Positions 16,366 through 34,619 of a stretch of 53,158 nt of DNA are shown piece after piece. The first letter of the stretch is position 1. Every line of letters starts with the position of its first letter. Under the pieces are notes generated by a model. That model did not search any database and was not told the origin of the DNA. It saw nothing but the letters and a program-made list of their open reading frames with translations. A program made the translations under genes and the position numbers. Origin of the DNA: a virus; IMG/VR virus record IMGVR_UViG_3300020183_000104, positions 1 through 53,158 of that record. One strand, 5' to 3'.

Positions 16366-16394
16366 TTGCGCTCCGGGGAGAGATGTATTATAAT
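16366..16394 (+). promoter_or_regulatory. sigma70-type promoter of primase gene
   Basis: -35 TTGCGC at 16366-16371, 17-bp spacer, perfect -10 TATAAT at 16389-16394. It lies just right of hexamer array R1 and 53 bp before the primase ATG. An ATAGAGGA ribosome-site element stands in the leader (about 16431). Confidence 0.65.
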
Positions 16395-16447
16395 TATACC
16401 AGCCCACCGAGGTGGTGTCAATAGTAATAGATAGAGGAACATAAAGG

Positions 16448-18001
16448 ATGGAAGGGTTAGTGAACGACTTCGCCGATTTATTCTCGGGGAACCTGCGCTC
16501 TTACGGGCGGTGGGATCCGGTCTCCGGGAACATGTCGACGGTAAAAGGGGAGGTCTCGAACGACCAGTACCTGGAACACCTGGAGGGTGGAATCGGGTTA
16601 GGGATCGTTCCTGTCTCGGACGGTGGTACCTGCAAGTTCGGGGCGATCGATGTGGACAAGCACGAGTCGCCGGAGGATATTGATTTCAAGGCGTTGCAAG
16701 CCAAGATCAACGAGTACCGGCTTCCGCTGGTGATGTGCCGGACCAAACGCGGGGGTGCACACCTATACCTTTTTGGCGACGAATACCTCCCGGCCAAGCA
16801 GGTGCGACGGGTGCTCGGATCGTGGCGGGATGTACTGGGGATTAAGCACAAGACCGAGATCTTTCCGAAGCAGGACTCGCTCGTAACTTCGAGTGGCGAG
16901 AAGGCGCTTGGTAACTGGATTAACCTTTGCTACTTCGACGCTGAGCAGACGCTCAGGTACGGATTCGACGATGATTGCAACAAGCTCTCGTTTGATCTTT
17001 TCCTTCAATATGCGCAAAGCAAGCGCGTCACCGTCGAGCAACTCGCCGAGCTTACCCTTCGCGAGCACCTGGAGGCACCACCCTGCATCCAAAAGATGAT
17101 TCACTCCGGCGTCGAGTCCGGTGCTCGGAATGAGGCGCTGTACAACGTCACCGTGTACCTGAAGAGGGCGAGGCCCGATAACTTTTTCGACGACGCGGTA
17201 GCGCTTAACGGTACGATGTTCGATAAACCGCTCGGGAACGCGGAAGCGAAAAAGGTCATTCGTTCCGCCTCACGGCGCGACTACCTGTATCGGTGTGCCG
17301 AGGAGCCCTGCAAGTCGCTTTGCGATCGGAAGGTGTGTGTAACCCGCGAGTTCGGAATCTCGATGGATGAGAAAAAAGTACTCGACGCCCACGACGCGCT
17401 ACCCCAGTTCTCGGAGCTGATCGAATACCTGTCGGACCCGCCTCGGTGGGGTATACACGTCAACGGGCAGTTGATCTCGAACATCCCGACCGTGGTGCTG
17501 AGGGACCCGAGCCTGATGGGTACGCTCATCTTCGAGCGACTCAAGATCAACATCCCGAAGATCACCCTCGATAATTGGCGCTCCCGGGTGTTGGATCCGC
17601 TGGTACCGAATATCCGGACGATCGAGGTGCCGAAGGAGGCGTCGGCGTCAGGGATCGTGCAAGCGAAGTTCGCCGAGTTCGTGCAGAAGGCCGATCTGTC
17701 CAAGGACGGGAAGGACACCAGTGATCGTAAAGCGCTGCTGCGTAACATCCCGATCGTGCAGGTCATCGACGGGACGCGTTGCGTAGTGTTCCGGGGGACC
17801 GCCTTCTCTGAGTACTTGAAGCGGAATAAAGCCGAGGTTCAGACCGGCATGGATCTGTGGACCACGCTGCGGCGCGATTGCAACGCCTCACACGATAAAA
17901 TCCGCGTGCCGGGTGGTAAGACCCTGAACGTCTGGTACGCTCCCATCACCGAGGAATATGAGGTCAAGGTCGATGAGCCTGAATTTACAACCGAGTTCTA
18001 A
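16448..18001 (+). CDS. primase-polymerase, archaeo-eukaryotic primase (AEP) type
   Basis: 517 aa. The AEP catalytic core is visible: motif I GAIDVD (Asp68, Asp70), motif II RGGAHLYLF (His105) and motif III region KTEIFPKQ (about 135-141). It resembles the primases of TOTE and phage PrimPol families, which make primers and can extend them. A GARNEALYNVTVYLKR stretch (about 226-240) fits a PriCT-like helical domain. Four cysteines (283, 288, 292, 297) form a probable zinc knuckle. The C-terminal 200 residues are unassigned. It is the first early gene, right after array R1 and its own promoter, as expected for origin-proximal priming. AEP PrimPols also occur in the Z-genome cyanophage S-2L. Confidence 0.82.
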   Translation: MEGLVNDFADLFSGNLRSYGRWDPVSGNMSTVKGEVSNDQYLEHLEGGIGLGIVPVSDGGTCKFGAIDVDKHESPEDIDFKALQAKINEYRLPLVMCRTKRGGAHLYLFGDEYLPAKQVRRVLGSWRDVLGIKHKTEIFPKQDSLVTSSGEKALGNWINLCYFDAEQTLRYGFDDDCNKLSFDLFLQYAQSKRVTVEQLAELTLREHLEAPPCIQKMIHSGVESGARNEALYNVTVYLKRARPDNFFDDAVALNGTMFDKPLGNAEAKKVIRSASRRDYLYRCAEEPCKSLCDRKVCVTREFGISMDEKKVLDAHDALPQFSELIEYLSDPPRWGIHVNGQLISNIPTVVLRDPSLMGTLIFERLKINIPKITLDNWRSRVLDPLVPNIRTIEVPKEASASGIVQAKFAEFVQKADLSKDGKDTSDRKALLRNIPIVQVIDGTRCVVFRGTAFSEYLKRNKAEVQTGMDLWTTLRRDCNASHDKIRVPGGKTLNVWYAPITEEYEVKVDEPEFTTEF

Positions 18002-20600: not shown

Positions 20601-21347
20601 ATGGCGAAAGCTAAAGGGTTAGTTGCTACCGCGAAGAGCGATTTCAATATTGTCACTACGGATGCTCCCGAGTGGCTCCCGACCGGCACGACGCGGGGAA
20701 CGGAGAACATCACGACGGACGACATGATCATTCCTCGAATCGAGCTGATTCAGGCGTTATCCCCTGCGCGGAACAAGAAGGACTCCTCCTACATCGAGGG
20801 GGCCGAAGAGGGGATGCTGTTCAATAACGTGACCCGCGAGCTTTACGGCGAGTCGGTCACCGTGATCCCGGTGTTCTACACCAAGCAGTACCTGATCTGG
20901 AAGGACCGCAAGCTCGGTGGCGGCAGCAATGGCTTTCGGGGCGCATTCAACACCCGCGAGGATGCACTGGCCGAGATCTCCAAGCTCGGTGAAGATGGGC
21001 TCGAAGCGACAGATACCGCGCAGCACTTCGTGCTCGTACATCATCTGGGGCAGGTCACCGAAGCTGTGCTTTCGATGAGCAAGTCGAAGATGAAGGTCAG
21101 CAAGCGTTGGAATTCGTTGGTGCGCATGACAAATATGGATTCGTTCGCTCGCGCTTACACGTTGTCTTCGGTTGAAGAGACCAACGCGCGGAACGAGTCT
21201 TATTATAATTTCAACATCGCACCGTTTGGATTCGTGAACAAATCGCTTTACGATCGGGCTCTCCAGCTCTTCACCACGATCAAGTCCGGTGGCGTCAAGG
21301 TCAGCAATGATTACGATGCTGCCGATGCTGGTGAATCTGAGTACTGA
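20601..21347 (+). CDS. conserved phage protein, possible DNA-binding/replication accessory
   Basis: 248 aa. The sentence-like motif MIIPRIELIQALSPARNKKD near residue 43 and the following YIEGAEEGMLFNNVTRELYG, YTKQYLIWKDR are typical of a widespread phage family next to helicase and polymerase genes, often suspected to bind ssDNA; I cannot name it securely. The middle is beta-rich, and the C terminus is acidic (NDYDAADAGESEY), as in many ssDNA-binding proteins. Its stop overlaps the start of the UvrD-like helicase by one base. A 69-bp gap precedes it, with no convincing promoter. Confidence 0.6.
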   Translation: MAKAKGLVATAKSDFNIVTTDAPEWLPTGTTRGTENITTDDMIIPRIELIQALSPARNKKDSSYIEGAEEGMLFNNVTRELYGESVTVIPVFYTKQYLIWKDRKLGGGSNGFRGAFNTREDALAEISKLGEDGLEATDTAQHFVLVHHLGQVTEAVLSMSKSKMKVSKRWNSLVRMTNMDSFARAYTLSSVEETNARNESYYNFNIAPFGFVNKSLYDRALQLFTTIKSGGVKVSNDYDAADAGESEY

Positions 21348-22768
21348 TGCACGTCCGGGCCATTTACGGTCCTCCTGGCACCGGTAAGACCACGGAGTTA
21401 CTGCGGTTAGTGCAGTACACACGCGAGACCGGTGTCCAGGCCGAGCAGATAGCGTTTCTATCGTTCACCCGTGCGGCGGCGAGTGAAGCGTTATCCAGGC
21501 TCGGTCTGAAGCGGTCCGATAACGTATCGACGATTCACGCGATGGCGTTTCGCTCTCTGAGGTTGAAGCAAGCTCAGGTGGTGGACCATATCAAGCTGCG
21601 TGAGTTCTCTAAAGTCACCGGCATTCCGATCGTCGGCAAGTCCCCCGAGGACGATGAAGAGCGCACCGACGGGGATGCTTACTTGGATCTTCTTAACTAT
21701 GCACGGAACACTTTTAGCCACCCTTCCGAAGTCTACGAGACTTCGGATCGTCCGGGCACTCGTGCGGAATACGAGATGTTCGTCTCTGCGTACGCGAACT
21801 GGAAGAAGACCTACGGTTATTACGACTTCACCGATATGCTCGAACGAGCCAGTTCGGGAGCTGTTCGACAAGGGATTGAGGTCCTTTTTGTCGACGAGGC
21901 GCAAGACCTTTCACCTCTGCAGTGGCGTGTTATTGAGCGGCTCACAAAACGCGCTCATCAAGTTTTTGTCGCGGGGGATGATGACCAAGCAATATATGCT
22001 TGGTCGGGCGCTGATCCACACGGTATGGCAAAATTCTGTTCGAAGCACAAGGGTGATAGCGTTGTGCTCTCGCTCTCGCATCGACTTCCTGTTGCAGTGC
22101 ACCAAAAGTCCCAGTCCCTCATTCGCCGAGTCCTTTTCCGCGTGGATAAGAAGTTCGATTCTTGTGGACGCTCAGGCACAGTACGGAACCATGGGTCAAT
22201 GGCGTCGGTTGATGTTGAACACGGCGAGGATACGCTGGTTTTGGCACGGACGCATTCAATCCTGCGCGAGGCTGAAAACGCGCTCATCGATCGCCGCATC
22301 CCCTATGTTCGCGAATCGGGCCGTCCGGGAATGTTCCAGAATCGGTATGCCGTTGGCCTTCGATCCTACAACAAGATTCGTGACGGAAAACGTTTATCAG
22401 ACTCTGATCGATCGGCTCTCTTTACAGTGGGATCAAGGGAGACAAAGGCAGCGCTTGAAAGAAACGATTACATGGCAGTCGTGGCATTCCCCTTCTACAT
22501 TGCGATCGAAATGCCACACCGCGTTATCGATTACTACCAGGAGGTCGACGTCGATGTGGAGCCGACTATACGACTCTCCACTATTCACGCAGCTAAGGGC
22601 CATGAGGCGAATCGCGTCATCGTACTTACGAATATGACGAACCGCGTGGCGGATAATGCACACACTAAGCCTGATGATGAGATCCGGGTGTGGTACGTGG
22701 CGTTGACACGCAGCAAAGACGTATTGGATATTGTGGAGGGCTACAATGGCTATAACCTAGATAATTGA
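21347..22768 (+). CDS. UvrD/Rep-like SF1 helicase
   Basis: 473 aa, short for the family (UvrD is about 720 aa). Motifs in order: Walker A IYGPPGTGKTTELLRLV, motif Ia FLSFTRAAASEALSRL, motif II VLFVDEAQDLSPLQWRVIER, motif III VFVAGDDDQAIYAWSGAD, motif V STIHAAKGHEANRVIVL and motif VI VWYVALTRSKDVLDIV. All ATPase motifs are present. The reduced 2B-like region explains the size. It would unwind DNA 3'-5' in replication or repair. Its stop codon overlaps the -35 box of the next promoter. Confidence 0.93.
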   Translation: MHVRAIYGPPGTGKTTELLRLVQYTRETGVQAEQIAFLSFTRAAASEALSRLGLKRSDNVSTIHAMAFRSLRLKQAQVVDHIKLREFSKVTGIPIVGKSPEDDEERTDGDAYLDLLNYARNTFSHPSEVYETSDRPGTRAEYEMFVSAYANWKKTYGYYDFTDMLERASSGAVRQGIEVLFVDEAQDLSPLQWRVIERLTKRAHQVFVAGDDDQAIYAWSGADPHGMAKFCSKHKGDSVVLSLSHRLPVAVHQKSQSLIRRVLFRVDKKFDSCGRSGTVRNHGSMASVDVEHGEDTLVLARTHSILREAENALIDRRIPYVRESGRPGMFQNRYAVGLRSYNKIRDGKRLSDSDRSALFTVGSRETKAALERNDYMAVVAFPFYIAIEMPHRVIDYYQEVDVDVEPTIRLSTIHAAKGHEANRVIVLTNMTNRVADNAHTKPDDEIRVWYVALTRSKDVLDIVEGYNGYNLDN

Positions 22769-22793
22769 CAGATAACCCCACGAGTGATATAAT
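22765..22793 (+). promoter_or_regulatory. strong sigma70 promoter of the polymerase/Z operon
   Basis: -35 TTGACA 22765-22770, 17-bp spacer, -10 TATAAT 22788-22793, with a TG extension. It overlaps the stop of the helicase gene and is 27 bp before the ATG at 22821, with AGAGGA at 22811. It probably drives the SSB-like protein, polymerase, PurZ, MazZ and DatZ. Confidence 0.88.
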
Positions 22794-22820
22794 AGACCCT
22801 TCACCACTATAGAGGACTTA

Positions 22821-23096
22821 ATGAAACAGTACGACAACACCAATTCCGGTCTGTTGATGCGGAATGAAAATCGGACCACAGACTCGCATCCCGAATTTAC
22901 TGGATCGCTTAACGTTGAAGGTCGCGACTTCTGGGTCTCGGCCTGGGTCAACATTGGCAAGCCCGGATCTAAGATCGAGGGGAAGCGCTACTTCTCGATT
23001 AAGGTCACGCCGAAGGACGCTCCGAACCGCGCGAACACGGGTCGCAAGAACGCGGCGACGAATTACGACGATATAGACGACGATATCCCATTTTGA
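22821..23096 (+). CDS. small protein with SSB-type C-terminal tail
   Basis: 91 aa. The body (HPEFTGSLNVEGRDFWVSAW, then INIGKPGSK-like and KRYFSIKVTP) is a small beta fold similar to short phage proteins of unknown function (DUF736-like in style). The C terminus is acidic and ends in DDIDDDIPF, the same tip as bacterial SSB (DDDIPF), which recruits SSB-binding partners. A role as phage ssDNA-binding protein or as a mimic that recruits host repair/replication proteins is inferred. It is first in the polymerase operon, right after a strong promoter, and its stop overlaps the polymerase start (TGATG). Confidence 0.72.
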   Translation: MKQYDNTNSGLLMRNENRTTDSHPEFTGSLNVEGRDFWVSAWVNIGKPGSKIEGKRYFSIKVTPKDAPNRANTGRKNAATNYDDIDDDIPF

Positions 23097-24934
23097 TGAA
23101 CATCCCACGCATTGACGGTCAAATCCCCTACTTGGTGGTGGACACTGAAACCACCGGCCTCAATTGGTTGGAGGATGAGGTATTTGGCGTCTCGATCGCA
23201 CTTCCTGACGGCACCGCCGGGTACTGGGATGTACGGGCGACGCCAAAGATCCTGGATTGGCTAAGCGATCTTATCGCCGAGGATCGGGTTGGGGTGTGGG
23301 TTGGGCATAATTTCAAGTTCGACCTGCACTTCCTGCGTGAAGCTCGGGTGAGCATTCCGACCGACCGGATCGATTGCACGATGATTCGGGCGGCGCTGAT
23401 CAATGAGCATGAACCGACCTACGGGCTGGATTTCTTGGCGCGGAAGTACGTTGGGGCGCAGAAGGACACGGAGATTTACGATGAACTGGCGAAGATATTT
23501 GGTGGCCGTGCTACACGCAACGCGCAGATGCCGAACATTTCACGCGCTCCTCAAGAGATCGTGGCGCGGTATGCAATCCTGGACGCGGTAGTCACGCGGA
23601 AGCTTTACCTGTGGCAGCGCGACGAGATCGAGAAGCAGAACCTGCATCGAGTCCATAGTCTCGAGCGTGAACTAATGCCCGTCATTATCGATATGGAGAC
23701 CGAGGGTGTGCGGGTCGACGTCGATATGGCCGAGAGAGCCTCCCGACACCTCACGAAGCGCATCGACGATATGCAGCGGGACTTGAATACGGAGGCCGGG
23801 TTCGAGATCAACCCGAACCCCTCCGGATCGATCGCGCAGCTATTCAAGCCGACCCTAGGGGAGGACAATGAGTGGTACCTGATCGACGGGACCCGGGCAG
23901 GGAAGACCGATGGCGGGAAGGCATCGATCGACGCTGATTGCTTGCGTCGTATGAAGCATCCGGCGGCGAAGATGATCCTTGATCTCCGCAAAATGCTCAA
24001 GACCCGCGACACTTTCATTCAGGGCCATATCCTTGGTCACCAGCAGGACGGGGTGATACACTGTAACTACAACCAGACCAAGAACGATGCGGAGGCCGGG
24101 ACCGGCACCGGGCGGCTTTCGATCACAAATCCGGCGCTGCAGCAGATTCCGTCGCGGGACGTAGCGATCAAATCGCTCGTGCGCCCGATCTTCAAGGCGG
24201 ACCACGGCGCGAAATGGTTGGGGCTCGATTGGTCGCAGTTCGAATTCCGGGTAGCGAATCACTACGGGCAGGTGCCGTCGATCCTGGAGGCCTACCGGGT
24301 AAATCCGAATCTGGACTTTCACCAGTTGGTGTCCGATATGACCGGCATCCCCCGGAACGCGCAGTACGCCGGGGGTCCATCCTCGAAGGCGATAAATCTC
24401 GGGCTCGCTTTCAATATGGGTTCCGGGCGGCTGGCCCAAGAATGCGGACTTCCCTACACCGAGGAGACGGGGCCGAATGGGAACGCGTACCTTAAGGCGG
24501 GACCCGAGGCAATGGAGCTTTTCGAGCGGTACCATGCCGCGAACCCCGGGATGCGGAACATGGCAAACAAGGCGAGTTCGATCGCCAAAGAGCGCGGGTT
24601 CGTGCATTCGATCTTGGGGCGGCATATTCGATTCCCGGGTGGGCAATTCGTGCACAAGGCGTCGGGGCTGATTTACCAAGCGACGTCGGCCGACTGCATG
24701 AAAATGAAGCTCATTGAGCTTCACCGCTATTTGACCGGCCACGGGGTGGGGCGGCTGCTGCTGTCCGTGCATGATGAGGTCGGAATCTCGCTTGATAAGG
24801 ATTCGCTGAATCACGCCGCGAAGATCGCGCAGATTTACACTACATTTGATGGTATCGATTGCCCGATCAAGCTCCGGGTACCGATTACCTGTGATTGGGG
24901 CTTGGGTGAAGACTGGTACGAGGCAAAAGGATGA
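23096..24934 (+). CDS. dpoZ: family A DNA polymerase with 3'-5' exonuclease (DpoZ-like)
   Basis: 612 aa from the ATG at 23096 (a TTG at 23093 is also in frame). The exonuclease domain has motif I VVDTETTGL (Asp16, Glu18), motif II VGHNFKFDLHF (Asp76) and motif III YAILDAVVT (Tyr159, Asp163). The polymerase domain has TGRLS, motif A GLDWSQFEFR (Asp378), motif B SKAINLGLAF (Lys431) and motif C LLSVHDEVGI (Asp560). There is no 5'-3' nuclease domain. The residue matching E. coli Pol I Phe762 is Leu435, a variant known in viral PolA. Its stop overlaps the purZ start by 4 nt; in Z-genome phages a polymerase in this position is called DpoZ. Whether it prefers Z over A cannot be read from sequence. 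Confidence 0.93.
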   Translation: MNIPRIDGQIPYLVVDTETTGLNWLEDEVFGVSIALPDGTAGYWDVRATPKILDWLSDLIAEDRVGVWVGHNFKFDLHFLREARVSIPTDRIDCTMIRAALINEHEPTYGLDFLARKYVGAQKDTEIYDELAKIFGGRATRNAQMPNISRAPQEIVARYAILDAVVTRKLYLWQRDEIEKQNLHRVHSLERELMPVIIDMETEGVRVDVDMAERASRHLTKRIDDMQRDLNTEAGFEINPNPSGSIAQLFKPTLGEDNEWYLIDGTRAGKTDGGKASIDADCLRRMKHPAAKMILDLRKMLKTRDTFIQGHILGHQQDGVIHCNYNQTKNDAEAGTGTGRLSITNPALQQIPSRDVAIKSLVRPIFKADHGAKWLGLDWSQFEFRVANHYGQVPSILEAYRVNPNLDFHQLVSDMTGIPRNAQYAGGPSSKAINLGLAFNMGSGRLAQECGLPYTEETGPNGNAYLKAGPEAMELFERYHAANPGMRNMANKASSIAKERGFVHSILGRHIRFPGGQFVHKASGLIYQATSADCMKMKLIELHRYLTGHGVGRLLLSVHDEVGISLDKDSLNHAAKIAQIYTTFDGIDCPIKLRVPITCDWGLGEDWYEAKG

Positions 24935-26034
24935 AGAAAATCGATTTGGTTATTGACCTTCAATTCGGCAGCACGGGTAAGGGGTTGATCGTCGGTACTC
25001 TTTCTACCTACGAGGGGTACGACACGGTGATTACCGCATGGGCACCAAACGCGGGGCATACGTTCATTGATGCCCGGGGGCGAAAGTTCGTACATACGCA
25101 TCTGGCCAACGGCATCGTGGCCCCCTACCTTCGTAGGGTACTGTTGGGTCCAGGCTCGGTCATCAATCCGGCGCAGCTCCTGGCCGAGATCGAGCAGTGC
25201 AAGGATATAATTGAAGAGAAGCGAATCAAGATCATGATTCACCCGCATGCAGCGGTGGTGACTGATGAACACTTGGAGGAGGAGGCGCAAAGCATGACGG
25301 CGATCGGCTCGACCAAGAAGGGCGTGGGCGCGGCGATGATCTCTCGAATCCGTCGGCAGCCAAACAAACCGGCCGTCGCGAAGGACTTCTTTGAACTCAT
25401 GGATCTGGTGTGCACCACCGAGCAGTACACGCGAGCGGTACACGATTCGACTCATATTCTAATCGAGGGTGCACAGGGCGTTGGGCTCTCTATGTACCAC
25501 GGTTTTTACCCCTACACGACCTCGCGGGACGTCAGCACCTTTCAAATCCTGGCCGATTGTGGAATTCCGGCGACGATCTTCAATCAGGCTTCCTGTCGTG
25601 TGGTCGGCACCGCGCGGACCTACCCGATCCGGGTAGCAAATCGATTCGATTCGGACGGGCGGCAGGTGGGCTTCAGTGGGCCGGGACACCTGGACCAGAC
25701 CGAGATCTCGTTCGAGCAGATCGGTCAGCCGACCGAACTCACCACGGTGACCAAGCTTCCCAGGCGCATTTTTACATTCAGTCGGCAGCAGATCCTTGGG
25801 GCGATCGACCTTTCTGGCGCGAGCGAGGTGTTTTTGAATTTCGTGAATTACGTGCAGGACGAGCAGTACCTGCTATCGATCGTGAACGCGATCGAGGAGG
25901 CCGGGGCTAGAATTAAATGGTTGGGTCTAGGTCCAGATATCCTCTCGGTGGTGCTGCTGTCCGAGGGTGAGAACTACACGGCGCGGCGCAAAGAGATCGT
26001 GTCCAAGTGGCAGCGTTACCAATTTCGTAATTAA
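24931..26034 (+). CDS. purZ: PurZ, N6-succino-2-amino-2'-deoxyadenylate synthase
   Basis: 367 aa, shorter than cellular PurA (about 430). It belongs to the adenylosuccinate synthetase family: P-loop QFGSTGKG (residues 11-18), PNAGHTF (His43), AIGSTKKGVGAA, IEGAQGVGLSMYHGFYPYTT and ARTYPIRVANR. In PurA the first loop reads GDEGKGK, with Asp13 as catalytic base. Here Ser14 takes that place, the established mark of phage PurZ, which accepts dGMP instead of IMP. The product dSMP is cleaved by host PurB to 2-aminoadenine nucleotide. No phage purB is present. It is coupled to the polymerase (ATGA overlap) and followed by mazZ and datZ, so the whole cassette is intact. Confidence 0.95.
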   Translation: MKKIDLVIDLQFGSTGKGLIVGTLSTYEGYDTVITAWAPNAGHTFIDARGRKFVHTHLANGIVAPYLRRVLLGPGSVINPAQLLAEIEQCKDIIEEKRIKIMIHPHAAVVTDEHLEEEAQSMTAIGSTKKGVGAAMISRIRRQPNKPAVAKDFFELMDLVCTTEQYTRAVHDSTHILIEGAQGVGLSMYHGFYPYTTSRDVSTFQILADCGIPATIFNQASCRVVGTARTYPIRVANRFDSDGRQVGFSGPGHLDQTEISFEQIGQPTELTTVTKLPRRIFTFSRQQILGAIDLSGASEVFLNFVNYVQDEQYLLSIVNAIEEAGARIKWLGLGPDILSVVLLSEGENYTARRKEIVSKWQRYQFRN

Positions 26035-26049: not shown

Positions 26050-26568
26050 ATGGCGAGTGAATTCATAATGAACTCGTTGCTTCACACCAACGAGAAAAAC
26101 CCCCTTCCTTGGTCTATCCACCCGGATACCGACTTGGTGGTGGTGGATGCGAACGGTGCGGCGGTCGCGAACTTTGAGGTAAGGCACCAACACAAGGGTG
26201 TACTCGCGAATTGCGAGAAGAATGCAGACTTGGCTGTGCGATCCGTTAACGCATTTGCCAAGCGCGGAGGGGCAGATATCCGGCGGCTGCAGCAGGTGGT
26301 CACCACTTGGGCGGACGAAGTGTTCCCGCATAGAAAGACACCCGACATTTTGCTTAAGCTCTACGAGGAGGTGGGTGAGTACGCCCGTGATCCGAAGGCG
26401 GCGGCAGAGTTCGCGGATATAATGATTTTGTTGCTCGATCTAGCGGCGATCAATGGCATCGATATTCAAAGGGCGGTTACCGAAAAAATGGCGTTGAACG
26501 TTGGACGTAAGTGGATCGTGGACTCTCAAACCCGTATTATGAGGCATACATATGATGAAAACCCGTAA
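26050..26568 (+). CDS. mazZ: MazZ, MazG-like (d)NTP pyrophosphohydrolase with extra N-terminal domain
   Basis: 172 aa. The C-terminal part (about 75-155) is MazG-like: KLYEEVGEYARDPKAAAEF with metal-binding Glu106, Glu107, Glu110, Glu120 and Asp123 (ExxE and ExxD pattern), then ADIMILLLDLAAINGIDI and KMALNVGRKW. In Z phages MazZ converts dGTP to dGMP, the PurZ substrate. The first 70 residues (PWSIHPDTDLVVVDANGAAV and NADLAVRSVNAFAKRG) resemble a small domain common in phage proteins, so this looks like a fusion. It lies 15 bp after purZ with an AGGAG site and overlaps the next gene by 17 nt. Assignment rests on family plus context. Confidence 0.85.
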   Translation: MASEFIMNSLLHTNEKNPLPWSIHPDTDLVVVDANGAAVANFEVRHQHKGVLANCEKNADLAVRSVNAFAKRGGADIRRLQQVVTTWADEVFPHRKTPDILLKLYEEVGEYARDPKAAAEFADIMILLLDLAAINGIDIQRAVTEKMALNVGRKWIVDSQTRIMRHTYDENP

Positions 26569-26772: not shown

Positions 26773-27321
26773 ATGAGTTTTTCTCTAGCTGAACAGCTCC
26801 GTGCTTCGCACGTTAAACGGTGGCAGATCGTCAACGTTTCGCGCACCCAGAATCTCGCGGAGCATCATTTTAACGTCACCCTCATTGTCGGTCAACTCGC
26901 TCGACACTGCAGGGACAAGCGGCTGCTCGACCCCCAGTACGCGTTGAGGCTCATGTACTGGTCGCTCTCGCACGATATGGTCGAGGTTCGTACTGGGGAC
27001 ACCCCGACGCCCTACAAGCGGGTGTTAGAGCAGGTGGGTGGGCCGGACATTATCGACAAGTCCGAGGAGGTCGTGGATCCCGAGTACATTGCCGACAAGC
27101 GTCGGATCGCTGGGACGCCCATCGAAATGTATGTGGAGATCGCGGATTTGATCGAGGCGATTTGGTTCCTGAGTGACCATGGAATTGGCAAGAGCGCAGT
27201 CGCCGTCCGGGCGGGGCTCGAAGCGTCGCTCGACCGATGTGTGCAGAAGTGGCGTGGGGTTTTTAGGGAATTGGATATTGATTTCGCGGTGTGCCGCGTA
27301 AGTGAGGAGATCGGAATATGA
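26773..27321 (+). CDS. datZ: DatZ, HD-domain dATP triphosphohydrolase
   Basis: 182 aa, close to the 175 aa of the S-2L protein. HD-superfamily, YfbR-like: KRWQIVNVSRTQNLAEHHFN (His31/32), YWSLSHDMVEVRTGDTPTPY (His67-Asp68, then the GD-TPTP loop) and a second metal-site Asp in VEIADLIEA. YfbR itself reads HD-SEVLTGDLPTPVK, so the fold is secure. In Z-genome phages DatZ removes dATP so that adenine does not enter the new DNA. Here it is the last enzyme of the cassette. A general 5'-nucleotidase is the alternative, but the purZ-mazZ neighbours make DatZ far more likely. Confidence 0.9.
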   Translation: MSFSLAEQLRASHVKRWQIVNVSRTQNLAEHHFNVTLIVGQLARHCRDKRLLDPQYALRLMYWSLSHDMVEVRTGDTPTPYKRVLEQVGGPDIIDKSEEVVDPEYIADKRRIAGTPIEMYVEIADLIEAIWFLSDHGIGKSAVAVRAGLEASLDRCVQKWRGVFRELDIDFAVCRVSEEIGI

Positions 27322-27518
27322 AATGCGTTAAATGTGGCGGTATCACCCAGGTCACGACCGTGTACCAAAACGCGAATGGTGGAACGCGTCGCCGCAGGGC
27401 ATGCACGGTCTGTCAATTCCGATTCACCACGCGCGAGTATCCGTCGATCACGGATCCGAAGCTCAAAGAGTACTATTTGGAGACAGATGTTGACACAGAT
27501 ACCCCGCCCGTGATATAA
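27318..27518 (+). CDS. NrdR-like zinc ribbon protein, no ATP-cone
   Basis: 66 aa. The first 40 residues copy the N-terminal zinc ribbon of NrdR, the repressor of ribonucleotide reductase genes: CVKC (Cys3, Cys6), basic RRRR at 24-27, CTVC (Cys29, Cys32), then FRFTTRE. The ATP-cone domain that senses dATP in NrdR is absent; only about 25 residues of acidic tail follow. It overlaps datZ by 4 nt. It could bind NrdR boxes of the host and alter the dNTP supply, or regulate phage genes. No nrd genes are in the window. Confidence 0.82.
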   Translation: MKCVKCGGITQVTTVYQNANGGTRRRRACTVCQFRFTTREYPSITDPKLKEYYLETDVDTDTPPVI

Positions 27519-27519
27519 T
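27490..27519 (+). promoter_or_regulatory. sigma70 promoter of the HDAC-like gene
   Basis: -35 TTGACA 27490-27495, 18-bp spacer, TATAAT 27514-27519 with TG extension. It lies inside the 3' end of the zinc ribbon gene, 29 bp before the next ATG. The AUAGAGGA element is at about 27536. Confidence 0.85.
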
Positions 27520-30283: not shown

Positions 30284-30568
30284 ATGAATGTTTATCTCAA
30301 TGCAATACTCGAGGAGCGCGGCTCCGAATATGGCGATTTCACCGCACAGGCGCAGATCTCCCAGGCGCTGCAGGACATAGCTAGGGCCGGGTGCAGCTAC
30401 ACCTCGACGGAATCCTACCAGAGGGAGGCACTCGCAATGATTTTACACAAAATCTCTAGGATCGTTAATGGAAACACACGGAACGTTGACTCATGGGCGG
30501 ATATCGCCGGATATGCCACACTCGTTGCAAACCGACTACAAAAGGGAGGGGGGATTGACAGATTGTAG
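30284..30568 (+). CDS. DUF6378-like phage protein
   Basis: 94 aa. The pattern ILEERGSEYGDFTAQAQISQ, QREALAMILHKISRIVNG and VDSWADIAGYATLVANRL is that of a small helical phage family listed, from memory, as DUF6378. Its order of conserved acidic residues is reminiscent of MazG-like helical folds, but metal-binding motifs are not clear. A strong AAGGAG site precedes the ATG. Its 3' end overlaps the -35 box of the next promoter. Function unknown. Confidence 0.75.
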   Translation: MNVYLNAILEERGSEYGDFTAQAQISQALQDIARAGCSYTSTESYQREALAMILHKISRIVNGNTRNVDSWADIAGYATLVANRLQKGGGIDRL

Positions 30569-30583
30569 CACCCGTGTTATAAT
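30555..30583 (+). promoter_or_regulatory. sigma70 promoter
   Basis: TTGACA 30555-30560, 17-bp spacer, TATAAT 30578-30583, TG extension. Its sequence around the -10 (CCCGTGTTATAATAGAG) is nearly repeated in the promoters at 34591 and 35873. It drives the gene at 30619. Confidence 0.88.
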
Positions 30584-31217: not shown

Positions 31218-31246
31218 TTGACAAGTTGTCCCACTGGTATTATAAT
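31218..31246 (+). promoter_or_regulatory. sigma70 promoter of DUF932 gene
   Basis: TTGACA 31218-31223, 17-bp spacer, TATAAT 31241-31246. It lies in a 141-bp gap that also holds the palindrome at 31190 and an AAGGAGG sequence at 31155 with no ORF after it. The DUF932 ATG is 34 bp downstream. Confidence 0.88.
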
Positions 31247-34513: not shown

Positions 34514-34594
34514 ATGGACGAAAGCCACGAGTACCAGAACATACCGTTCATCCGATCCGACGAGCGGTGGGTTCGAAATCCGCCTTTGGCTTGA
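34514..34594 (+). CDS. very small ORF, 26 aa
   Basis: Begins with ATG 7 nt after an AAGGAG site (34502-34507) and encodes MDESHEYQNIPFIRSDERWV plus six residues. Its TGA overlaps the -35 box of the next promoter. The good ribosome site and tight fit support translation, but the length is too short to be certain. Confidence 0.4.
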   Translation: MDESHEYQNIPFIRSDERWVRNPPLA

Positions 34595-34619
34595 CAAAGT
34601 ATTGCACCGGTGTTATAAT
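34591..34619 (+). promoter_or_regulatory. sigma70 promoter
   Basis: TTGACA 34591-34596, 17-bp spacer, TATAAT 34614-34619, TG extension. CACCGGTGTTATAATAGAGG around the -10 is identical to the promoter at 35873. It drives the gene at 34671. Confidence 0.9.

What the first reader, a model, noticed from the sequence alone, without database searches (positions are those of the whole stretch)
22821..23096. 91-aa protein with an SSB-like DDDIPF tip
The last residues DDIDDDIPF equal the partner-recruiting end of bacterial SSB, on a body that does not look like a full OB fold. It may be the phage ssDNA-binding protein, or it may compete for host SSB partners.
Basis: partly seen in the sequence, partly recalled or inferred. 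Interest (0 to 1): 0.52.

Follow-up and report, generated by a model that had tools for sequence, protein, structure and literature searches.

The report
Phage protein with host-matched SSB tail
A tiny phage protein, made just ahead of the phage's own DNA polymerase, ends in a copy of the tag that bacteria use to call repair and replication proteins to single-stranded DNA; in relatives that tag tends to match the tag of the particular host, on a body that does not look like the usual single-strand-binding fold.

Summary
The 91-aa gene (22821-23096) ends in DDIDDDIPF, and the ending is conserved in a large phage family: 114 of 120 distinct members end in PF, against 9 of 4351 other ORFs in the same loci. 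The window is a 2-aminoadenine (Z) phage: DpoZ-like polymerase, PurZ, MazZ- and DatZ-like genes follow. The gene has a perfect sigma-70 promoter and overlaps the polymerase start.

Databases call the family 'ssDNA binding protein', but the label seems to rest on the tail: phage VP2's member matches solved SSBs only over its last 38 residues. No Pfam SSB domain is found, and AlphaFold gives a four-stranded sheet, not a five-stranded OB fold.

New evidence: in 13 bacterial genomes carrying a member with a tail, the tail resembles that host's own SSB tail more than other hosts' (permutation P 5e-6 for 11 residues, 0.0036 for 6; 0.004 and 0.14 without the three best pairs).

Best reading: a phage stand-in for SSB that recruits host SSB partners to phage ssDNA. 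ssDNA binding is untested.

The parts
22821..23096 (+). 91-aa SSB-like protein (whole gene with stop)
   Evidence: PHROG 7364 E 7.3e-14, PHROG 18154 E 1.3e-13
22821..23015 (+). conserved body (residues 1-65): YDNTN...N15...P24..G28...G34...W42...S59...K65; predicted four-stranded sheet (9-14, 26-32, 35-46, 56-64)
23016..23066 (+). variable, predicted disordered linker (residues 66-82)
23067..23093 (+). SSB-type C-terminal tip DDIDDDIPF (residues 83-91; hexapeptide DDDIPF 23076-23093)
22765..22793 (+). perfect sigma-70 consensus promoter TTGACA-17-TATAAT with TG before the -10; identical hexamers in the six relatives aligned
   Evidence: one of six such sites in the window, 0.02 expected
22811..22816 (+). 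AGAGGA ribosome-binding-like stretch before the ATG at 22821
   Evidence: read from the sequence
23096..24934 (+). DpoZ-like family A DNA polymerase; its ATG (23096-23098) overlaps the stop of the SSB-like gene (TGATG)
   Evidence: best PDB match phiVC8 DpoZ 7pbk, E 5e-140; Pfam DNA_pol_A; overlap
24931..26034 (+). PurZ (2-aminoadenylosuccinate synthetase), start overlaps the polymerase stop; FGSTGKG with Ser where PurA has the catalytic Asp
   Evidence: PHROG 1211; phiVC8 PurZ 6fm1 E 1.3e-81
26050..26568 (+). MazZ-like dATP/dGTP pyrophosphohydrolase
26773..27321 (+). DatZ-like HD phosphohydrolase
21347..22768 (+). UvrD-like helicase just upstream

Best explanation
It is a small phage protein that works like SSB. 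The N-terminal body, a four-stranded sheet that is not the SSB OB fold, coats or touches single-stranded phage DNA (inferred). A flexible linker then carries an SSB-type tip (shown by sequence) that docks in the SSB-tip pocket of host replication and repair proteins, such as RecO, PriA, RecQ/RecG, Exo I or the chi clamp-loader subunit (inferred from the known role of the tip). The tip is fitted to the host: in genome-borne members it resembles the tail of that host's own SSB (shown statistically). In this phage it is made from its own consensus promoter in one overlapping block with DpoZ and PurZ (shown by sequence), so SSB, Z-polymerase and Z-precursor enzyme come together when Z-DNA is copied. 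Not shown: ssDNA binding, partner binding, oligomeric state.
For: Tail kept in 114 of 120 distinct members while linkers diverge. Tail-to-own-host match: 13 pairs, permutation P 5e-6 (last 11 residues), 2e-4 (8), 0.0036 (6); own SSB ranks first of 20 host tails for 6 of 13. Striking pairs: RNDDVNDDIPF with host RNDDMNDDIPF (G028), RNADMDDDIPF with RNSDMDDDIPF (G072), PADLDDEIPF with PADMDDEIPF (G027). Among named phages, VP2 (Vibrio) and VLCpiS6a (Klebsiella) end EPPMDFDDDIPF, as do the E. coli and 7f2n SSB chains in PDB. Replication or recombination setting: Z polymerase/PurZ in 15 of 166 family loci, Erf annealing gene in 45 of 166. No PF00436 SSB gene in the window or in 32 of 32 records with the gene. 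Two bodies with one tail in VP2/phiVC8/K300. Body net charge +2, linker +3, tail -5 in the window protein. A phage precedent: the last six residues of the HK620 SSB are needed for its partner Sak4 (PMC5928155, abstract and passages).
Against: No ssDNA-binding data. Foldseek found no PDB match with E under 1; the PUR and PC4 ssDNA-binding folds that recur among the VIA rows score only Z 2.6-4.4, mixed with unrelated sheets. Mean body charge of the family is only +0.8 (range -4 to +7). Some members carry residues after DDIPF (phiVC8, L089, L184, L186, G072, L194), which should spoil a tip that must be C-terminal; genome-borne members in G034, G535, G292 and G1489 have no PF tail. 11 of the 13 pairs were the discovery set, two of the best pairs are related to each other, and without the three best pairs the 6-residue test fails (P 0.14). 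Many host SSBs share DDDIPF, so for several pairs the own host is not special (rank 13-16 of 20 for G026, G029, G030, G033).
Confidence: 0.58

Rival explanations
1. Decoy: the protein does not bind ssDNA but saturates the SSB-tip pockets of host repair proteins (for instance RecO, RecQ, Exo I), protecting phage replication intermediates from host enzymes.
For: Host-matched tail; small body; strong early-type promoter.
Against: A decoy needs no conserved 65-residue body, yet P24, G28 and M1 are invariant and D5, N6, N8, N15, G34, W42, S59, K65 nearly so over 65 diverse members, and the body is duplicated behind one tail in VP2/phiVC8/K300. Constant position beside Erf or the polymerase fits a replication or annealing factor better.
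Confidence: 0.2
2. The tail serves phage-encoded partners (the adjacent UvrD-like helicase, DpoZ, Erf or primase), as the HK620 SSB tail serves Sak4, and likeness to host SSB tails is incidental.
For: Precedent in HK620 (PMC5928155); fixed neighbours.
Against: Neighbours differ between phages (Erf or PolA/PurZ) while the tail stays, and the tail follows the host.
Confidence: 0.17
3. A DUF736-like protein of other function (RNA or dsDNA binding, or regulation) that happens to carry the tip.
For: 15 of 65 members have a weak DUF736 match, best E 0.0031; the family-body profile picks up true DUF736 proteins (G646 E 2.7e-5, G136 E 4.3e-4, confirmed by Pfam); plasmid relative annotated DUF736.
Against: DUF736 has no known function, so this names a relative, not a rival activity; the two true DUF736 hits read here show no PF tail (last 150 residues shown).
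Confidence: 0.1

Closest known systems
PHROG 7364 / 18154 'single strand DNA binding protein' (Vibrio phage VP2 p29, phiVC8 p31, Acinetobacter phage SH-Ab 15497, Chaseviridae such as phiEcoM-GJ1 gp15)
   Same: Same family by profile (E 7e-14 and 1e-13, all 65 members of A2 match both), same tail, same neighbours DpoZ and PurZ in the Z phages
   Different: One body here, two in VP2/phiVC8/K300; 38-40% identity to its isolated-phage relatives, none above 60%. The family's function is annotated, not demonstrated in anything I found.
Bacterial SSB (PF00436; E. coli SSB)
   Same: C-terminal tip DDDIPF on a disordered linker
   Different: No PF00436 match; four predicted strands instead of the OB barrel; 91 instead of about 178 residues
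DUF736 (PF05284)
   Same: Weak profile likeness over the body
   Different: Below Pfam's cut-off for the window protein, which has no Pfam match at all; no tip in the two true DUF736 hits read
PUR-alpha / PC4 / T5 PC4-like ssDNA-binding sheets
   Same: Four-stranded antiparallel sheet; recur in the VIA rows of both models: 8 of 50 rows counting MRP1/2 and 10 of 50
   Different: Z only 2.6-4.4, no C-terminal helix in the model, no sequence likeness; may be a common sheet shape only
Phage HK620 SSB with Sak4
   Same: Phage-coded SSB whose last six residues load a recombination partner (PMC5928155)
   Different: Called a bona fide SSB there (section heading); its partner is phage-encoded

Membership tests
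PHROG 7364/18154 phage 'ssDNA binding protein' family | Significant match to the family profile over the body | tested here: met
   phrog_7364 residues 1-79, E 7.3e-14; phrog_18154 residues 3-51, E 1.3e-13
PHROG 7364/18154 phage 'ssDNA binding protein' family | ssDNA binding (the name) | not testable with these tools
   no experiment found; label traced to tail likeness
Bacterial SSB (PF00436) | OB-fold SSB domain by profile | tested here: not met
   0 Pfam matches at E up to 10; no PF00436 in the window record
Bacterial SSB (PF00436) | five-stranded OB barrel by structure | tested here: inconclusive
   AlphaFold2 monomer shows four strands, but it is a prediction without oligomer or DNA; OB folds were not among the listed rows, which does not exclude them
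Bacterial SSB (PF00436) | conserved acidic tip ending in PF | tested here: met
DUF736 (PF05284) | score over Pfam's gathering cut-off | tested here: not met
   window protein has no Pfam match at E up to 10; 15 of 65 members match weakly at E up to 1, best 0.0031
PC4/PUR/whirly-like ssDNA-binding fold | clear structural match | tested here: inconclusive
   Z 2.6-4.4 in VIA rows; Foldseek PDB best E 1.4
Z-genome (2-aminoadenine) phages (the window) | PurZ with Ser in place of the catalytic Asp, beside DpoZ and DatZ/MazZ | tested here: met
   FGSTGKG identical with phiVC8 PurZ 6fm1; Ser rule from PMC8515928 (passage); DpoZ 7pbk E 5e-140; DatZ/MazZ-like. The DNA itself was not analysed.

The most novel reading that the evidence does not exclude
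A widespread class of phage SSBs that arose independently of the OB-fold SSB: a minimal four-stranded ssDNA-binding sheet (perhaps of PUR/PC4 kind) onto which phages graft, and keep re-tuning, a copy of their host's own SSB tail, so that the host's SSB-partner proteins accept phage (here Z-containing) ssDNA as if coated by host SSB.
Probability: 0.38. Interest if true: 0.68.

Novelty: new variant of a known kind. Interest (0 to 1): 0.47.

Why it matters
If right, the C-terminal tail of a phage protein records which host's SSB partners it must use, which makes tails a readable host signature and names a small, testable SSB substitute without an OB fold. It also shows that a function label carried by about a hundred phage records rests on a short tail rather than on the domain that would bind DNA, and it adds an SSB-like candidate to the replication module of Z-genome phages: none of the three Z papers searched for SSB terms treats a separate phage SSB.

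Tried and rejected
Rejected: that the gene is a frame artefact (conserved with start, stop and promoter in seven relatives L002-L008 at 92% and in L009/L010); that it is a general part of the Z machinery: in four other PurZ phages looked at (Arthrobacter Wayne, cyanophage S-2L, Bacillus vB_BpsS-140, Gordonia Ghobes) no ssDNA-binding protein is annotated within about 9 kb of purZ (annotation only, not searched by profile), and its Z-phage members are not one clade (11 rows, 5 changes; few columns, long branches); that PHROG hits count as family members in bacteria: of 98 of 398 Pseudomonadota genomes with a phrog_18154 match, the 30 loci fetched were host SSB genes in 28 and true family members in 2, so that route gave almost nothing and the body-only profile A6 was used instead (4 of 399, 6 of 385, 3 of 369 genomes, centre genomes included).

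Led nowhere: Pfam, NCBIfam and PDB sequence searches with the window protein; PDB profile search, best E 0.24 to the Shiga-like toxin B subunit as a listed chain, an OB fold by my recollection, not followed; Foldseek against PDB; the OB fold does not stand among the listed VIA rows; Erf query for SSB displacement, 6 records only, none with a canonical SSB annotated beside Erf in the two regions read.

Rows dropped in the tail test: of 13 genome-borne members, G034 (member has no PF tail) and G036 (SSB cut by the contig end); of 9 further genomes, G535, G292, G1489, G863 (member without PF tail), G646, G136 (DUF736), G1111 (spurious short match); 13 pairs of 22 genomes used. Tails with residues after PF (G026, G028, G072) were cut at PF before scoring. 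Where a genome had several SSBs the best-scoring one was taken. Three tail lengths were tried and all are reported. The bins are partly metagenome-assembled and may be mis-binned.

Full report
What is there. The window is a 53,158-base virus record, 54% G+C. At 22821-23096 (+) lies a 91-codon ORF ending DDIDDDIPF. It sits between a UvrD-like helicase (21347-22768) and a family A DNA polymerase whose ATG shares a base with its stop codon (TGATG at 23094-23098); the polymerase stop overlaps in turn the start of the next gene at 24931. That next gene is PurZ: best solved match phiVC8 PurZ 6fm1 (E 1.3e-81), with the FGSTGKG stretch in which Ser stands where PurA has its catalytic Asp (the Ser rule is from a passage of PMC8515928). 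The polymerase is closest to phiVC8 DpoZ 7pbk (E 5e-140). MazZ-like and DatZ-like genes follow. So this is a 2-aminoadenine (Z) phage by gene content; its DNA was not analysed.

Expression. Directly before the gene stands TTGACA-17-TATAAT (22765-22793), a perfect sigma-70 promoter preceded by TG at the -10; six such perfect sites occur in the window where 0.02 are expected, and this one keeps both hexamers in the six relatives aligned. An AGAGGA stretch precedes the ATG; the polymerase start has no evident one and overlaps the stop, so the SSB-like gene and polymerase are probably coupled in translation (inference).

Family. tblastn finds 133 phage records, all under 60% identity; PHROG 7364 and 18154, both named single strand DNA binding protein, match at E 7e-14 and 1e-13, and all 65 members of alignment A2 match both. 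Three more scans of IMG/VR gave 80, 21 and 58 loci, some of them overlapping. Of 120 distinct proteins with a stop, 114 end in PF; of the six others, four carry DIPF followed by 1 to 14 residues (L032, L151, L154, phiVC8), L089 carries it before 11, and L090 has lost it. Positions -4 and -3 are D in 108 and I/L/V in 110 of 119 members aligned at their last PF, whereas positions -7 to -10 are loose (PF is fixed there by construction).

Where the label comes from. VP2 p29 was annotated 'similar to Vibrio cholerae SSB', phiEcoM-GJ1 gp15 'similar to' VP2 and VP5, phiVC8 p31 similar to phiEcoM-GJ1, and VpV262 ORF24 'similar to single strand DNA binding protein C-terminus'. Searched against all PDB sequences, VP2 p29 matches E. 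coli SSB (E 0.022) only over residues 121-158, that is linker and NEPPMDFDDDIPF. The PHROG 18154 profile behaves the same way: of 30 loci fetched from 98 matching genomes (of 398), 28 are host SSB genes and 2 are family members. The name is thus a claim inherited from a tail, not evidence about the body.

The body. Invariant or nearly invariant residues over 65 members are M1, D5, N6, N8, N15, P24, G28, G34, W42, S59, K65 and the final PF. AlphaFold2 predicts four strands (9-14, 26-32, 35-46, 56-64; pLDDT 91-93 for residues 11-60; pTM 0.56) and no helix; with L046 first, the same four strands at lower confidence (mean pLDDT 71). Foldseek finds no PDB match with E under 1 and, among viral models, mainly uncharacterised phage proteins, one DUF736 protein and Vibrio phage JSF9 SSB. 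Realigned PDB rows are weak (best Z 4.0 and 4.6); PUR and PC4 proteins, including the T5 phage PC4 homologue, recur in both lists (3nm7, 4bg7, 3n8b, 4usg, 6ycs, 1pcf, 4agh and the MRP1/2 entry 2gia; 8chu, 8chv, 8cht, 4bg7, 3nm7, 3n8b, 4agh, 4usg, 6ycs, 5a4n), among beta-propellers, phage coats and designed sheets. That is a lead, not a match. Distant kinship with DUF736 is likely. In VP2, phiVC8 and K300 two bodies precede one tail.

Company it keeps. Across 166 family places (window and named phages included) the held stretch has PurZ in 15, an Erf-type annealing gene in 45, PolA without PurZ in 2, an SF2 helicase alone in 1, and none of seven marker profiles in 103, many of them short contigs. 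PurZ is in 7 of 32 whole records searched. None of these 32 records, nor the window, has a PF00436 SSB, while the control rings in 10 of 14 genomes; how often phages in general carry PF00436 was not measured.

Tail and host. If the tip docks on host proteins it should follow the host. A scan of 84,980 genomes gave 13 with a member; all 13 have an SSB gene. For 11 usable pairs the summed BLOSUM62 score of the last 11 residues was 365 against a permuted mean of 286 (P 0.00014; 8 residues 0.0014; 6 residues 0.005). Searching 399, 385 and 369 further genomes (overlapping draws) gave nine more genomes, of which two had a member with a tail; in both the own host's SSB ranked first of 20 tails. All 13 pairs: P 5e-6 (11), 2e-4 (8), 0.0036 (6). 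Without the non-Pseudomonadota pairs G035 and G037 (assigned by record title): 1.5e-4, 0.0095, 0.044. Without the three best pairs: 0.0039, 0.012, 0.14. The own SSB ranks first of 20 for 6 of 13, and 13th to 16th for 4 of 13. In G027 the matching tails differ by several synonymous codons, which speaks against fresh copying of host DNA; in G028 the DNA is closer. Cautions: few pairs, G028 and G072 share a linker and are not independent, the permutation ignores phylogeny, and some genomes are metagenome bins.

Reading. The tip has a known job: host replication and repair proteins dock on it (start of abstract of PMC10164576 in the listing; the partner list RecO, PriA, Exo I, chi is partly recalled). 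In phage HK620 the last six residues of the phage SSB are needed for its annealing protein Sak4 (PMC5928155, abstract and passages). I commit to an SSB-like recruiter: the body holds phage ssDNA, the tip calls host partners. Shown: conserved tip, tandem bodies, operon with the Z polymerase, absence of canonical SSB in the records searched, host-matched tails. Inferred: ssDNA binding, partners, benefit. The decoy and the phage-partner readings remain open.

Papers searched for experiments on this family. PMC4802629 (passages) discusses phiVC8 ORF31 as SSB by similarity only. PMC12884076 holds none of the terms SSB, single-strand, ssDNA; PMC8599892 and PMC8065100 mention ssDNA only for templates or a VirE-like domain. 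The library holds open-licence papers only, so subscription papers were not seen.

Noticed in passing
window 16393-16421 (-), 22765-22793, 27490-27519, 30555-30583, 31218-31246, 34591-34619 (+): Six perfect TTGACA-N17/18-TATAAT promoters, five of the spacers ending in a TG just before or near the -10; 0.02 expected by chance. They share spacer features and may be the phage's early promoter set.
   Followed up: partly
window 20601-21347; phiVC8, SH-Ab 15497, VLCpiS6a loci L016, L015, L018: A Pam3 gp34-like protein of unknown function (PHROG 2402, Pfam PF23977) stands upstream of the SSB-like gene across these Z phages.
   Followed up: no
L016 (phiVC8 p31), L089, L184, L186, L252 (G072), L194: Family members in which the DDIPF tip is followed by further residues (5 to 28 aa, for example APE[VF]R in two members), although a free C-terminal Phe is thought to be needed for docking (recalled); either the tip is used internally or the ends are processed.
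   Followed up: no
L178, L016, L180: VP2, phiVC8 and Vibrio phage K300 proteins carry two body repeats before one tail, as multi-domain SSBs do.
   Followed up: partly
L253 (G885), L193, L194: Genome-borne members with long Gly/His/Gln- or Pro/Ala-rich linkers between body and tip, like those of host SSBs.
   Followed up: no
window 16448-18001: Primase with an AEP-TOTE domain (Pfam PF22548 E 5e-12; PHROG 21866 primase), beside an SNF2-type helicase.
   Followed up: no
PHROG 18154 profile: The profile named ssDNA binding protein matches bacterial SSB genes through linker and tail (28 of 30 loci), so automatic annotation with it can name proteins by their tail alone.
   Followed up: yes
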